Shown here in pieces: positions 7,232 to 10,688 of a stretch of DNA of 64,000 nt. The notes under the pieces were generated by a model, which saw only the letters and a list, made by a program, of their open reading frames with translations, was not told the DNA's origin and made no database searches. The stretch is taken from the NCBI RefSeq assembly GCF_902167635.1, contig NZ_CABHMS010000005.1, forward strand, positions 372,001 through 436,000. Reading direction: 5' to 3'. The DNA comes from Chitinophaga vietnamensis. GTDB taxonomy: Bacteria > Bacteroidota > Bacteroidia > Chitinophagales > Chitinophagaceae. The position numbers and the translations under genes were made by a program. How positions within the stretch are numbered: position 1 is the first letter of the stretch; every line of letters begins with the position of its first letter.

Positions 7232-7981
7232 ATGTGCTACGATATTGCTTTTTCTTCCCGGATAGAAAGTATTTTCAAGTTGATCCCTGACCTGAAGAAA
7301 AAGAAGCTGGATATAGATTTCAACATTACTTATCACAAGATCGGGATGTCGTTTCCGCAATGGCCGGTGGTGGTGAACCGGGATGGCCTGGAGCTGCAAA
7401 CCTTTACCTGGGGGCCTGTTCCGAAGATGTTGAATACGATGGAGAAGGTGAAGAAGCAACGGCAGTTATTTCTGAATGCGCGTAGCGAGAAGGTATTGGA
7501 GCCAGGTACGATGTGGCATGCGATCCGTCATCAGCGTTGCCTGGTGCCGGTTACGGGTTTCTTTGAATACCGGCAGATACCGGGATGGAAGAACAAGGTA
7601 GCTTATTATATTAGCCAAAAAGAGCAGGAGGTATTTTTTATGGCGGGCCTGTGGGCTTTGTCTAATTCCTGGGATGTGGATAAGCCGGAGCGGATACCAA
7701 CGTTTACGATACTGACGCGCAGCGCCAATGCGCTGATGGCGCAGATACACAATGGCGGCGATAATGCGGGCAGGATGCCGTTGATGCTGAGCAATGAGCT
7801 GGCACAGTCCTGGCTGCAACCGGACCTAACGGATACGGATATACGCGAATTGCTGCAATACGAATTGCCTTCGGCCGCATTGGATTACTGGCCGGTAAAT
7901 TCTGTGCGGAAGGTGAAACCGGACGATGAGTCGGTACTGGCGCGGGTGGCTTACGAGGGCTTGCCGGCGCTGGTGTTATAG
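7232..7981 (+). CDS. SRAP / YedK (HMCES-like) abasic-site crosslinking protein
   Basis: The 249-residue protein begins Met-Cys. Cys2 is the residue that SRAP proteins expose after Met removal and link covalently to abasic sites in single-stranded DNA. Other family marks are NARSEKV (about residues 84-90), the Glu of GFFEYR (about 110) and the His of the H...RMP motif, here HNGGDNAGRMP. The protein protects abasic sites during replication and acts on the nucleoid. The gene overlaps the convergent XRE regulator gene by 6 bp. A TATATTTG element at 7203-7210 could be its -7 promoter box. Confidence 0.93.
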   Translation: MCYDIAFSSRIESIFKLIPDLKKKKLDIDFNITYHKIGMSFPQWPVVVNRDGLELQTFTWGPVPKMLNTMEKVKKQRQLFLNARSEKVLEPGTMWHAIRHQRCLVPVTGFFEYRQIPGWKNKVAYYISQKEQEVFFMAGLWALSNSWDVDKPERIPTFTILTRSANALMAQIHNGGDNAGRMPLMLSNELAQSWLQPDLTDTDIRELLQYELPSAALDYWPVNSVRKVKPDDESVLARVAYEGLPALVL

Positions 7982-8308
7982 CCGGTTGGCGCGCAGGGTT
8001 TGTATCACTTCCAGCAGGGAATCTACCGTTTTTTGTTTGGCCTGTAATTCTTCATGGAGGATGCCGATCACGCTTCTCATTTCCTGCCATATGGCGTTGT
8101 CATTGACGGTTGCTTCCGTGCAACAGAGCAGTGTGGCGAGCGGGGTGCCAAGAATACCGGCGATTTTTTCGAGCCTGTCGATGGTGATATTCACCTGTCC
8201 GTTCTCCAGTTTGCAATAGGCGTTCTGCGAAATGTCCAGTTCCTGTGCGATATATTCCTGCGTAAGGTTCCGTTCCATCCGCAGTCGTTTGATGGTTGCA
8301 GCTATCAT
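7976..8308 (-). CDS. XRE-family helix-turn-helix regulator
   Basis: This 110-residue protein has an N-terminal HTH_3 domain (residues about 5-60: RLRMERNLTQEYIAQELDISQNAYCKLENG...). The C-terminal half contains a predicted coiled-coil helix (LQAKQKTVDSLLEVIQTLR) that could dimerise. It binds DNA as a repressor or activator, but its target is not visible. It is divergent from the small secreted protein gene at 8574, with a 265-bp AT-rich gap between. Control of that cassette is possible but unproven. Confidence 0.9.
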   Translation of the reverse strand: MIAATIKRLRMERNLTQEYIAQELDISQNAYCKLENGQVNITIDRLEKIAGILGTPLATLLCCTEATVNDNAIWQEMRSVIGILHEELQAKQKTVDSLLEVIQTLRANRL

Positions 8309-8573: not shown

Positions 8574-8927
8574 ATGAAATGCATCTTCAATGCTAAAACA
8601 GCCGCATTGGCCTGTTTAGCGGTAACAGTTGTTACCCTCTCCAGCTTTACACATGCTTCTTCTACCGGCGCGCTTGGTAAAGGCAAGCTCATTAGCAACC
8701 AGGTAGCCAGCGCCATCGTGCCTGGCCAGGAAAGCGCCAGCTATCTGACGCCCATTCCTACTACTTATGTGATTACTCCCACACTTTACATTGTCCGCAT
8801 CACAGCGCTTCGTACTGCCATCCTGGACTACCCTACGGCAGATATCGTAAAATCCGGACCAGTAGCCGGTCCTGGCCTGCTGAACGAAGCAGAAATGGTG
8901 AAAAGTAAAATGAGTCGTCTCGACTAG
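8574..8927 (+). CDS. Small secreted protein, candidate precursor for the adjacent SdpA/SdpB-like pair
   Basis: This 117-residue protein has a clear Sec signal peptide (positive MKCIFNAK, hydrophobic core, cleavage after THA near residue 28). The mature roughly 89 residues contain no cysteine. A non-polar middle stretch lies around residues 52-86 (YLTPIPTTYVITPTLYIVRITA), and the tail is charged. I do not recognise a family. It is followed by two hairpins and then by a one-pass membrane protein and an HTTM protein. In the Bacillus SdpABC system the analogous gene encodes the secreted toxin precursor. The substrate role is inferred from gene order only, and a simple hypothetical exported protein is the alternative. 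Confidence 0.75.
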   Translation: MKCIFNAKTAALACLAVTVVTLSSFTHASSTGALGKGKLISNQVASAIVPGQESASYLTPIPTTYVITPTLYIVRITALRTAILDYPTADIVKSGPVAGPGLLNEAEMVKSKMSRLD

Positions 8928-8934
8928 CAAATTA

Positions 8935-8965
8935 GCCCTTGAAGCGCTCGAAGCGCTTCAAGGGC
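8935..8965 (+). repeat. 31-nt hairpin repeat, copy 1
   Basis: Perfect 14-bp arms GCCCTTGAAGCGCT (8935-8948) and AGCGCTTCAAGGGC (8952-8965) flank the loop CGA. It lies 8 bp after the stop of the small secreted protein. Copies 2 and 3 are at 9007 and 10658. Confidence 0.95.
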
Positions 8966-9006
8966 AAACACCTTAATTGCTAAAGAAAAAGCGGCTAAGG
9001 TATCCA

Positions 9007-9037
9007 GCCCTTGAAGCGCTTCAAGCGCTTCAAGGGC
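9007..9037 (+). repeat. 31-nt hairpin repeat, copy 2
   Basis: It has the same 14-bp arms as copy 1 with loop TCA, and ends 21 bp before the ATG of the SdpA-like gene. An in-frame TTG at 9011 would translate the hairpin, but the downstream ATG at 9059 is the credible start. Confidence 0.95.
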
Positions 9038-9058
9038 TTCCCTCTAAACTATCTTTTT

Positions 9059-9697
9059 ATGCGATACCTACGACCTGTCATCTTTCTATCCTTCATCGGA
9101 TATTTTGTGATGACTTTCATTTTCACGATGCCGGATAATTTCGTTTACCTGAAATTATATCCGCAAAGCCAGACCTTCCAGTTCTGGCTATTTCAGCGCT
9201 GGGGCTTCTTTGCACCGCCGCCTACCTTCGATGAGCGCCTGTATTATGAATTCAGGAATAAAGTAACGAAGCAACAACAGGTGGTAGAAGTACTGGAACA
9301 TATCACTGCGGAAAAGCAACGGAAAGCGCCTTTCAACTGGCATGAGGAAATACTCGATTACGTCATCTCCGGAAACGTAGGCGGCGTAAGCGATATGTCT
9401 TCAGAGCTGCATAACAACCTGGTCTATCAACAAAAGATGAACAAGAAAACGGGCACAGATACTGCCGCAGAAATCCGGATCAGGAGCTACATACAGCACA
9501 GTAACTCCTTTCTCACCCTGAGCAATTATGGCGCATTGGTAGCGCGGGAAAATAATATCGATACCGCCGCCAGCGAAATGCGCCTGCTGATCACCCGTAT
9601 CAACCTGCCGAAATTCTCTGAGCGCAATGAGCCGGAATCCGCGCCACGCAAGGAGGATGCGGTTTTTATGAGCGACTACCTTTCATTTAACAAATAA
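9059..9697 (+). CDS. One-pass membrane protein, SdpA/DUF5819-like
   Basis: The protein has 212 residues from ATG 9059. A single N-terminal transmembrane helix spans residues about 5-23, then a soluble domain presumably on the outside. The segment FWLFQRWGFFAPPP (residues 42-55) resembles the W-x-FFxP motif of SdpA and DUF5819 proteins, which are partners of HTTM/SdpB proteins in peptide maturation. The rest is helical and charged with no known catalytic motif. It is followed after 11 bp by the HTTM gene, so the two are co-transcribed. The family call rests on the short motif and gene order, hence moderate confidence. Confidence 0.68.
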   Translation: MRYLRPVIFLSFIGYFVMTFIFTMPDNFVYLKLYPQSQTFQFWLFQRWGFFAPPPTFDERLYYEFRNKVTKQQQVVEVLEHITAEKQRKAPFNWHEEILDYVISGNVGGVSDMSSELHNNLVYQQKMNKKTGTDTAAEIRIRSYIQHSNSFLTLSNYGALVARENNIDTAASEMRLLITRINLPKFSERNEPESAPRKEDAVFMSDYLSFNK

Positions 9698-9708
9698 AAA
9701 TCACTGCT

Positions 9709-10632
9709 ATGACGCTCTACCAGGAAATGATCCGCATGGAGAAAAAGAATAATTACTCGTTCTATCTGGCGGTGTTCAGGGTGTTCATCTGCCTGCACCT
9801 TGCCAAAACCATCTTTTTTCAATGGCCTTATCTCGATATTCTTTACGGGCCGCAATCCTTTATATCGCCTACGCCTACCGTGCTCACAGAATTGCTGGGC
9901 ATCAAAAGCATGTTTATCCGCGAGCACTACCAGGCATTCATCGTGATGTACCTGCTCATTATTATGTTGTACCTCTTCGGCATTGGCAAGCATTTTACAG
10001 CATTGGTGCTGTTTCTGTTCTATGAAACCATACAGCGCTTGTGCAATGTGGTACTTAACGGCGGCGATAACTTCCTCCGCTTTGTAGTGCTGTATATGGT
10101 GTTTGCCAACAGTTATGAATATTTCAGTATCCGGGCAATCAGTATCCGGAGCGAAACCCTGCAACGCTTGTCCAACCTGTTTTCCAACCTGGCAGTGCGC
10201 GCGGTGACCATCCATTTTTGTATTGTGTATTTCTGGTCAGCCTTCCACAAGATACATGCAGATGTGTGGTTCAATGGCGTTGCTACCTACTACATACTCA
10301 GCCTGGCGCGCTTTAAAGGCACACCCTGGAACGACCTGCTGGTGAAAAACGGTTACTTTGTAACCTTGTCCACCTACTTCACACTGCTGGTAGAAATGTA
10401 TTTCCCGGCATTGGTATGGTTCAGGAAAACACGCGTGCCTATTATTGTTTGTGGCATCGCCTTGCATTTGGGGATCTATATTTTTATGATGATATACGGC
10501 TTTGAAGTCATCTTCATTTTTACTTACGGGTTTTTCTTCAACGATAAAGCCTGGTTGGGGATGTTGAATAAAGTGATCAGCCGTATCAATAGTATGGCGC
10601 GCTGGAAGATACCACAGGTGAGCATATCGTGA
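9709..10632 (+). CDS. HTTM-domain multipass membrane protein, SdpB-like
   Basis: This 307-residue protein has about six to eight hydrophobic helices. It carries HTTM marks: an early charged/aromatic helix (FRVFICLHLAKTIFF), the NGGDN motif at residues 117-121, a VYFWSAFHKI...W.NG segment and a late HLGIYIFMM helix. HTTM proteins are relatives of vitamin-K-dependent gamma-carboxylase, and SdpB of Bacillus, needed to mature the SdpC toxin, is one. Here it directly follows an SdpA-like gene. It acts in the inner membrane, and the substrate may be the secreted protein at 8574. The closing hairpin at 10658 may be its terminator. Confidence 0.82.
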   Translation: MTLYQEMIRMEKKNNYSFYLAVFRVFICLHLAKTIFFQWPYLDILYGPQSFISPTPTVLTELLGIKSMFIREHYQAFIVMYLLIIMLYLFGIGKHFTALVLFLFYETIQRLCNVVLNGGDNFLRFVVLYMVFANSYEYFSIRAISIRSETLQRLSNLFSNLAVRAVTIHFCIVYFWSAFHKIHADVWFNGVATYYILSLARFKGTPWNDLLVKNGYFVTLSTYFTLLVEMYFPALVWFRKTRVPIIVCGIALHLGIYIFMMIYGFEVIFIFTYGFFFNDKAWLGMLNKVISRINSMARWKIPQVSIS

Positions 10633-10657
10633 ATGAGAAAGATATTCAGGCGGAGTA

Positions 10658-10688
10658 GCCCTTGAAGCGCTTTAAGCGCTTCAAGGGT
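10658..10688 (+). repeat. 31-nt hairpin repeat, copy 3
   Basis: Arms GCCCTTGAAGCGCT (10658-10671) and AGCGCTTCAAGGGT (10675-10688) flank the loop TTA. Only the last base differs from the other copies, leaving a G-T pair. It lies 25 bp after the HTTM stop and 17 bp before the convergent gene end. Confidence 0.93.

What the first reader, a model, noticed from the sequence alone, without database searches (positions are those of the whole stretch)
8574..10688. Possible SdpABC-like peptide maturation cassette in a Bacteroidota genome
A small signal-peptide protein without mature cysteines (8574-8927), a one-pass protein with a W-x-FFxP motif (9059-9697) and an HTTM protein (9709-10632) follow each other and are bracketed by identical hairpins. 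In Bacillus, SdpA and HTTM protein SdpB convert the secreted SdpC into a toxin. Here the first gene would be the substrate. What is seen: gene order, lengths, motifs. Known: SdpAB role in Bacillus. Inferred: that the 117-residue protein is processed by the pair. No immunity gene is obvious; the XRE gene at 7976 is the only regulator nearby.
Basis: partly seen in the sequence, partly recalled or inferred. Interest (0 to 1): 0.75.

Follow-up and report, generated by a model that had tools for sequence, protein, structure and literature searches.

The report
SdpAB-like maturation cassette with mini-precursor
Next to a membrane protein pair that resembles the makers of a Bacillus killing peptide sits a small, fast-changing exported protein that very probably is their substrate, and the same arrangement recurs in other bacterial groups, so it may mark a little-studied class of exported, probably antibacterial, peptides.

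Summary
The three genes are real: a 117-aa exported protein (8574-8927), a one-pass W-x-FFAPPP protein (9059-9697) and an HTTM protein (9709-10632). The trio stands in 11 of 12 loci of this type (9 in 8 of 79 Chitinophaga genomes; three). Close homologues of the small gene lie only beside the pair (7 of 79 genomes), and a divergent XRE gene tracks the main clade (6 of 79). The small proteins keep a signal peptide and, in 10 of 12, a C-terminal ...[LF]D motif around a variable core. In another family all 11 close HTTM loci carry two to five tandem precursors ending in [DE]FxxFD (28 genes; 0 of 424 other ORFs) and a candidate membrane immunity protein. Profiles join the middle protein to DUF5819 (E 1.5e-13), only weakly to SdpA (1.3e-4), and the HTTM protein to SdpB (1.1e-15). 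None reaches a curated SdpA, SdpB or SdpC cut-off: it works like SdpABC but is not filed as SdpABC. The 'bracketing' hairpins are a genome-wide palindrome (108 matches per strand).

The parts
7976..8308 (-). XRE/Cro-type regulator, divergent, cassette-linked in the main clade
   Evidence: HTH_3 E 1.2e-14; close homologues (E<=2.9e-25, >=50% identity) in 6 of 79 Chitinophaga genomes, each beside the cassette
8574..8927 (+). 117-aa secreted precursor (SdpC position): signal peptide, variable hydrophobic middle, C-terminal tail
   Evidence: no family hit at E<=1; close homologues only beside the pair in the genus
8742..8831 (+). residues 57-86, hydrophobic middle, proposed mature peptide region (inferred)
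   Evidence: hydropathy peak at residues 66-84; middle less conserved than the signal peptide in all five close-clade comparisons
8910..8924 (+). residues 113-117 (MSRLD), C-terminal motif
   Evidence: motif in 10 of 12 window-type precursors against 2 of 355 other ORFs, both of these being precursors of another cassette
8934..9038 (.). two palindromes of a genome-wide repeat in the gap between precursor and processing genes; they can also pair with each other
   Evidence: gap fold z -10.6
9059..9697 (+). 212-aa one-pass protein with P-D-N and W-x-FFAPPP; DUF5819-related, SdpA-like
   Evidence: hhalign to DUF5819 proteins prob 98.0, E 1.5e-13; to SdpA prob 53.4, E 1.3e-4
9709..10632 (+). 307-aa polytopic HTTM protein, SdpB-like
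   Evidence: TIGR04033 E 1.7e-7; hhalign to canonical SdpB prob 98.6, E 1.1e-15 over 256 columns
10657..10687 (.). third copy of the genome-wide palindrome, after the HTTM gene

Best explanation
The cassette makes and releases a short secreted, membrane-active peptide in the manner of SDP in Bacillus. The 117-aa precursor is exported through Sec and loses its signal peptide. The one-pass DUF5819/SdpA-like protein and the HTTM/SdpB-like protein, both in the inner membrane, then recognise the precursor, probably by its C-terminal end (...MxxLD), and mature it so that the hydrophobic middle is freed. The divergent XRE gene probably controls the operon. Shown: gene linkage, homologies, recurrence of the C-terminal motif, variable middle. 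Inferred: tail recognition, cleavage or modification, release, and antibacterial action. My estimate is about 0.8 that the small protein is the substrate of the pair and about 0.6 that the product is antibacterial. (On re-checking I lowered the first from 0.85 and the whole from 0.62, because the precursor profile misses known divergent precursors and the tail is not better conserved than the middle among the nearest relatives.)
For: Linkage: trio in 11 of 12 window-type loci. Precursor profile: 7 of 79 genomes at E<=2.2e-31, all beside the pair, the next E being 0.011 inside a 469-aa frame (six of the seven are in the model). Same order in canonical SdpC-SdpA-SdpB cassettes of the same bacterial family. 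SdpB homology. C-terminal motif in 10 of 12, and in 2 of 355 other ORFs, both precursors of another cassette. Second family: 11 of 11 loci, 28 tandem precursors with the [DE]FxxFD tail, 0 of 424 other ORFs. Tandem precursors there share their ends more than their middles. Precursor less conserved than its partners: mean identity 0.20 / 0.29 / 0.39 for precursor, DUF5819-like and HTTM over 14 loci, with correlated distances. A candidate membrane immunity protein follows the pair in 11 of 11 of those loci and in one Chitinophaga locus. In Bacillus, SdpA and SdpB are needed to process SdpC, whose hydrophobic C-terminal part is the toxin and differs between homologue groups (PMC6818787, passages).
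Against: No immunity gene beside the cassette in the window. SdpA homology is weak. The precursor does not match SdpC TIGR04032 at E<=1 and has no mature cysteine, unlike the SDP peptide, which starts at a cysteine. Two window-type precursors deviate at the tail: L006 (KMKMLG) and L014 (MKLAKL). The last 13 residues are no better conserved than the middle in the nearest relatives (L003 7/13 against 44/75, L039 6/13 against 43/75), only in L006 clearly so (4/13 against 9/67). The precursor profile did not find the known precursors of L040 and L041, so divergent orphans could be missed. L018, L101, L102 have the pair without an upstream secreted gene. Distant DUF5819+HTTM pairs sit beside large secreted proteins. 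Tandem copies are not always different: the two Virgibacillus precursors are nearly identical. The middle of the window protein is only moderately hydrophobic (1.41 Kyte-Doolittle).
Confidence: 0.6

Rival explanations
1. DUF5819+HTTM is a general modification or release system for secreted proteins (for example a vitamin-K-carboxylase-like chemistry), and the small protein is a surface or matrix protein, not a toxin.
For: HTTM is a domain of the vitamin K carboxylase GGCX (PMC5343777, passages), and some plasmid HTTM genes carry a carboxylation GO term. Some DUF5819+HTTM pairs follow ice-binding proteins or a 738-aa secreted protein.
Against: Window-type precursors hold few acidic residues (3 to 13 Glu+Asp), not a Gla-like cluster. 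In the second family tandem copies differ most in the middle, and a recurrent candidate immunity gene lies next to the pair.
Confidence: 0.24
2. The cassette makes a non-toxic secreted signal peptide (pheromone-like), read by the divergent XRE regulator or a receptor elsewhere.
For: XRE gene tightly linked in the main clade; no immunity gene beside the cassette in the window.
Against: XRE not seen at the other window-type loci (for G037, G495 and the second G483 locus; for the rest); hydrophobic, often Gly/Ala-rich middles; arrays of two to five precursors in the second family.
Confidence: 0.12
3. It is an ordinary SdpABC operon, merely diverged.
For: Same order as canonical Chitinophagaceae SdpC-SdpA-SdpB; SdpB-family match.
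Against: No PF17418 match in the own genome at E<=0.01; the precursor lacks the TIGR04032 match that canonical precursors show; the middle protein is much closer to DUF5819 than to SdpA. Genome G008 holds two canonical cassettes and the window type at different places.
Confidence: 0.06
4. Chance neighbourhood of three unrelated genes.
For: None beyond the short distance.
Against: Recurrence across Chitinophaga, Lewinella and a phylum-level relative; automatic filter 18 of 23 against 10 of 138, the loci not being independent; no close orphan precursor in 79 genomes.
Confidence: 0.02

Closest known systems
Bacillus SdpABC (SDP) and YitPOM (YIT) toxin operons
   Same: Exported precursor with a hydrophobic part that varies between homologues, one SdpA-like and one SdpB-like membrane protein (PMC6818787, passages)
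   Different: Precursor unrelated to SdpC by family model, 117 aa, no mature cysteine, C-terminal LD/FD motif, gene order C-A-B, middle protein DUF5819-like, no SdpI/SdpR-type gene seen next to it
Canonical SdpC-SdpA-SdpB cassettes of Chitinophagaceae (L023, L024, L042-L044)
   Same: Order C-A-B, SP or lipoprotein-like precursor with a hydrophobic C-terminal part
   Different: These pass the Pfam SdpA cut-off, and the one SdpB scanned passes its cut-off; precursors are 196-311 aa with a TIGR04032 match
DUF5819 + HTTM pairs (Pfam PF19136, PF05090)
   Same: Window middle protein aligns with DUF5819 proteins over 183 columns, E 1.5e-13; HTTM next; a small secreted gene upstream on 4 of the 8 plasmids found
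   Different: DUF5819 has no assigned function in Pfam; the window proteins themselves do not reach either Pfam model at E<=1
HTTM protein of linaridin clusters (crdG)
   Same: HTTM protein assumed to act in maturation of a ribosomal bacteriocin (PMC9927463, passage)
   Different: Here the precursor has a Sec-type signal and the partner is DUF5819-like; linaridin precursors were not compared here

Membership tests
SdpABC | SdpC-family precursor (TIGR04032) | tested here: not met
   No hit at E<=1 for 8574-8927; canonical relatives hit at 1e-10 to 2e-23, though below the 99.2-bit cut-off
SdpABC | SdpA (PF17418) | tested here: not met
   No hit at E<=1, none in the own genome at E<=0.01 while B. 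subtilis rings; only weak profile similarity, prob 53.4, E 1.3e-4
SdpABC | SdpB (TIGR04033) above cut-off | tested here: not met
   31.2 bits against 178.4, E 1.7e-7; homologous by profile, prob 98.6
SdpABC | substrate, SdpA-like and SdpB-like genes adjacent on one strand | tested here: met
   Window and 10 of the 11 other window-type loci
SdpABC | toxin peptide beginning at a cysteine | tested here: not met
   No cysteine after residue 14; Bacillus SDP is C141-S182
SdpABC | adjacent membrane immunity gene | tested here: not met
   None downstream in the window and no homologue of the relatives' candidate anywhere in the window; candidates in 11 of 11 f29 loci and L013
SdpABC | SdpA/SdpB-dependent production of an active peptide | not testable with these tools
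   Needs deletion strains and mass spectrometry
DUF5819 (PF19136) | match to the Pfam model | tested here: not met
   Window protein no hit at E<=1, L017 at 0.0055 below cut-off, two f29 proteins over cut-off; profile link prob 98.0
HTTM (PF05090) | match to the Pfam model | tested here: not met
   Window protein no hit at E<=1; f29 relative L104 27.9 bits against cut-off 27.7

The most novel reading that the evidence does not exclude
This is one member of an undescribed class of ribosomal secreted peptides found in at least three phyla: a conserved signal peptide, a variable, often Gly/Ala/Val-rich hydrophobic core and a C-terminal [LF]D tail that serves as the address for a DUF5819-HTTM maturation pair. 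Precursors are often encoded as tandem arrays, in one family with different cores, and are paired there with a new membrane immunity protein family, which would make DUF5819 the general counterpart of SdpA.
Probability: 0.48. Interest if true: 0.82.

Novelty: new variant of a known kind. Interest (0 to 1): 0.7.

Why it matters
It gives two family names without a known role (DUF5819, and HTTM outside vitamin K biology) a concrete, testable job: maturing small exported peptides addressed by a C-terminal tail. It would move SDP-like peptide warfare from sporulating Bacillus into Gram-negative Bacteroidota, where the hydrophobic product must also cross an outer membrane, and it supplies a short sequence tag with which precursors can be found by computer.

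Tried and rejected
Hairpins as a cassette element: rejected, the palindrome has 108 matches per strand genome-wide. A stable fold in the gap after a precursor does recur (z <= -2.4 in 15 of 16 gaps tested, L143 +0.8), but in a wider control it is only modest: median z -3.5 in 13 precursor-to-A gaps (including about 0 at L017) against -1.4 in 51 other same-strand gaps, one-sided p 0.010. The z values come from my own shuffles and differ between the two calls.

Filing as SdpABC: rejected on three family models. Solved relatives: none by sequence for the HTTM or canonical SdpA profiles; the window SdpA-like profile gave only 10 weak matches, best E 0.024. Window middle protein on plasmids: no match.

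Carboxylation of the precursor: judged unlikely from the low Glu+Asp counts. Lipoprotein reading of the precursor (Cys14): judged unlikely by inspection, because the hydrophobic stretch follows that cysteine.

Novelty in print: nine paper searches in the open-licence PMC library. 'DUF5819' gave 0 papers, HTTM with SdpB 0, sporulation delaying protein with Bacteroidetes 0. Subscription papers and preprints were not searched. Of three papers I saw passages only (PMC6818787, PMC5343777, PMC9927463), of the others the listing.

C-terminal motif, order of events: I had seen the tails of L059 before writing the regular expression. With that first expression (at most 2 residues after D) 4 of the 10 then unseen f29 loci gave a hit (L111, L112, L113, L118). 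The other six carry [DE]FxxFD followed by 5-6 more residues and were caught only after I widened it to 9; the wide general motif also hits 9 of 424 other ORFs, the strict [DE]FxxFD form 0 of 424. The signal-peptide filter also returned 5 short ORFs of 45-69 aa without the strict tail, which I read as spurious. Several f29 loci are near-identical (for example L143/L144, L145/L146), so 11 loci are fewer independent events. On plasmids, 4 of 5 small precursors end in FDK/FDL but do not fit the window-type expression, and the Macrococcus one has no such end.

Parts of lists not read: of the phylum HTTM scan (42 of 395 genomes, 30 loci) the contexts of L058-L085 were printed (L067 gave no clear ORF). 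Of 30 f29 loci shown, 15 were read (L059, L111-L121, L131, L137, L138); L122-L130, L132-L136, L139 and the matches without a locus were not. Of the four read below the top group, L137 and L138 look like canonical SdpC-A-B and L121, L131 like other types.
Full report
WHAT IS THERE. The window lies in a 6.3-Mb genome whose same-genus relatives include named Chitinophaga records. The three genes stand at the stated places. The first encodes 117 aa: a hydrophobic N-terminus with lysines, a moderately hydrophobic middle (peak 1.41 at residues 66-84) and the end ...KSKMSRLD. Its cysteines are residues 3 and 14 only. The second is a 212-aa protein with one N-terminal membrane segment, then MPDN and W-x-FFAPPP. 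The third is a 307-aa HTTM-type membrane protein. An XRE gene (7976-8308, minus strand) diverges from them.

HAIRPINS. Three near-identical palindromes flank the second and third genes, two of them in the gap after the small gene. The same palindrome has 108 matches per strand in the genome at up to 3 mismatches, so it does not define the cassette. A stable fold in the gap after the precursor is common in relatives, whatever its sequence (15 of 16 gaps at z <= -2.4), but against other same-strand gaps the difference is only modest.

RELATIVES IN CHITINOPHAGA. A profile of the second protein finds 9 places in 8 of 79 genomes of the genus and 3 of 395 genomes of the phylum, one being the window's own genome. 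A scan of named genomes confirmed 5 loci, four of them the same Chitinophaga loci and one in Lewinella. That makes 12 window-type loci. Reading them shows a small signal-peptide gene upstream and the HTTM gene directly downstream in 11; in L041 the gap to the small gene is 364 bases, and L018 lacks the small gene. One locus (L040) has two small genes in a row whose N-terminal and last residues resemble each other more than their middles. The small-gene profile finds 7 of 79 genomes at E<=2.2e-31, all beside the pair, then nothing better than 0.011. Six of the seven are in the model, and the profile misses the known precursors of L040 and L041, so only close orphans are excluded. The XRE protein has close homologues in 6 of 79 genomes, each beside the cassette. 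The cassette is thus a patchily distributed unit.

KINSHIP TO SDP. In Bacillus subtilis the 203-aa SdpC is exported, and SdpA and SdpB are needed to turn it into the 42-aa hydrophobic SDP toxin; the hydrophobic parts differ between homologue groups, and the immunity proteins SdpI and YitQ are specific (PMC6818787, passages seen). Genuine SdpC-SdpA-SdpB cassettes exist in Chitinophagaceae (L023, L024, L042-L044), with the substrate gene first, as in the window. One genome (G008) has two of them and the window type as well. The window-type HTTM proteins align with canonical SdpB over 256 columns (prob 98.6, E 1.1e-15). The window-type second protein aligns only weakly with canonical SdpA (prob 53.4, E 1.3e-4, over the membrane segment and the W-x-FF motif). 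By family models the window genes are none of SdpA, SdpB (below cut-off) or SdpC.

DUF5819 AND A SECOND FAMILY. Searching the HTTM profile through another family of the same class (f29, unnamed, 204 genomes) gave a clear top group of 11 loci (E<=4.7e-53; next 1.8e-23). All 11 have a W-x-LFAPNP protein upstream. The two of these scanned match Pfam DUF5819 (1.1e-21 and 1.9e-18), and an alignment of nine of them matches the window second-protein family over 183 columns (prob 98.0, E 1.5e-13). The window protein is therefore best called DUF5819-related and SdpA-like. In front of it all 11 loci carry two to five small exported proteins in tandem, 28 in all, ending in DFxxFD or EFxxFD plus 0-6 residues; none of 424 other ORFs of 60 aa or more does so. 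Signal peptides and tails are kept more than the middles (23 of the 28 aligned). The window-type motif, [LMFIV]xx[LF]D, is in 10 of 12 precursors and in 2 of 355 other ORFs, which turned out to be precursors of an f29 cassette. Within the window's own close clade the last 13 residues as a whole are not better conserved than the middle (L003 7/13 against 44/75; L039 6/13 against 43/75; L004 6/13 against 26/70; L006 4/13 against 9/67), so the case for the tail rests on the motif across distant loci. How the motif was widened is told under Tried and rejected.

CANDIDATE IMMUNITY. Behind the HTTM gene all 11 f29 loci have a 172-181-aa protein with about four membrane segments by hydropathy. A Chitinophaga locus (L013) has its homologue at the same place (BLASTP E 2e-13 for the pair). 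No Pfam family at gathering score covers the four scanned.

BEYOND THE PHYLUM. DUF5819 with HTTM occurs on 8 plasmid records found here. Four carry a small signal-peptide gene upstream (two Streptomyces, Virgibacillus with two nearly identical copies, Macrococcus), with FDK or FDL ends in four of the five proteins. Two carry an ice-binding-like protein, one a 738-aa secreted protein, one neither. The pair may therefore serve larger secreted proteins too, which is the main support for the rival reading.

HOW IT PROBABLY WORKS. Export by Sec, signal peptide removal, recognition of the tail by the DUF5819/HTTM pair, freeing of the hydrophobic core, action on membranes of competitors. The first two steps follow from the sequence and general knowledge; the others are inference. 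Evidence that the small protein is the substrate is good: linkage, no close orphans, correlated divergence (Mantel r 0.83-0.84 with the partners), recurring C-terminal motif, tandem copies. Evidence for killing is indirect: hydrophobic variable cores, arrays, the candidate immunity gene in relatives, and the SDP and YIT parallel.

LIMITS. No structure prediction was available. Signal peptides and membrane segments rest on hydropathy. Many loci are closely related and are not independent. Residues called important in the HTTM protein are those invariant in both alignments; no catalytic role was tested.

Noticed in passing
window 8934-8965, 9006-9038, 10657-10687 and genome-wide: A 30-base palindrome (GCCCTTGAAGCGCTT core) has 108 matches per strand in the genome at up to 3 mismatches, REP-like; what spreads it was not examined.
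   Followed up: partly
L023, L024, L042, L043, L044, L109: Canonical SdpC-SdpA-SdpB cassettes occur in Bacteroidota, sometimes with two SdpC-like genes (L023, L109); L023 also has an upstream DUF1648 (PF07853, E 2.7e-11) protein that may be SdpI-like.
   Followed up: partly
L081-L085: A recurring pair of a 369-383-aa lipoprotein-like gene (imelysin-like by eye, recalled) and a 451-456-aa HTTM protein, a different HTTM system.
   Followed up: no
L153, L155, L073, L078: HTTM genes beside secreted proteins with long TTGATT/TSGSTSG-type repeats, hinting at larger substrates.
   Followed up: no
L011, L012, L014, L017, L150, L152, L154: DCC/DUF393 thiol-disulfide oxidoreductase-type genes (by annotation in L150, L152, L154; by eye in L011, L012, L014) and serine hydrolases (annotated in L150, L154; PF00144 in L017) follow the HTTM gene in several cassettes.
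   Followed up: partly
window 8574-8927, residue 14: A cysteine at position 14 or 15 of the signal segment is kept in 8 of 12 window-type precursors; reason unknown.
   Followed up: no
L066, L069, L072, L108: A further HTTM set: 145/146-aa exported paralogues in tandem (L108), a WSFGFFS protein and an HTTM protein, probably another branch of the same principle.
   Followed up: partly
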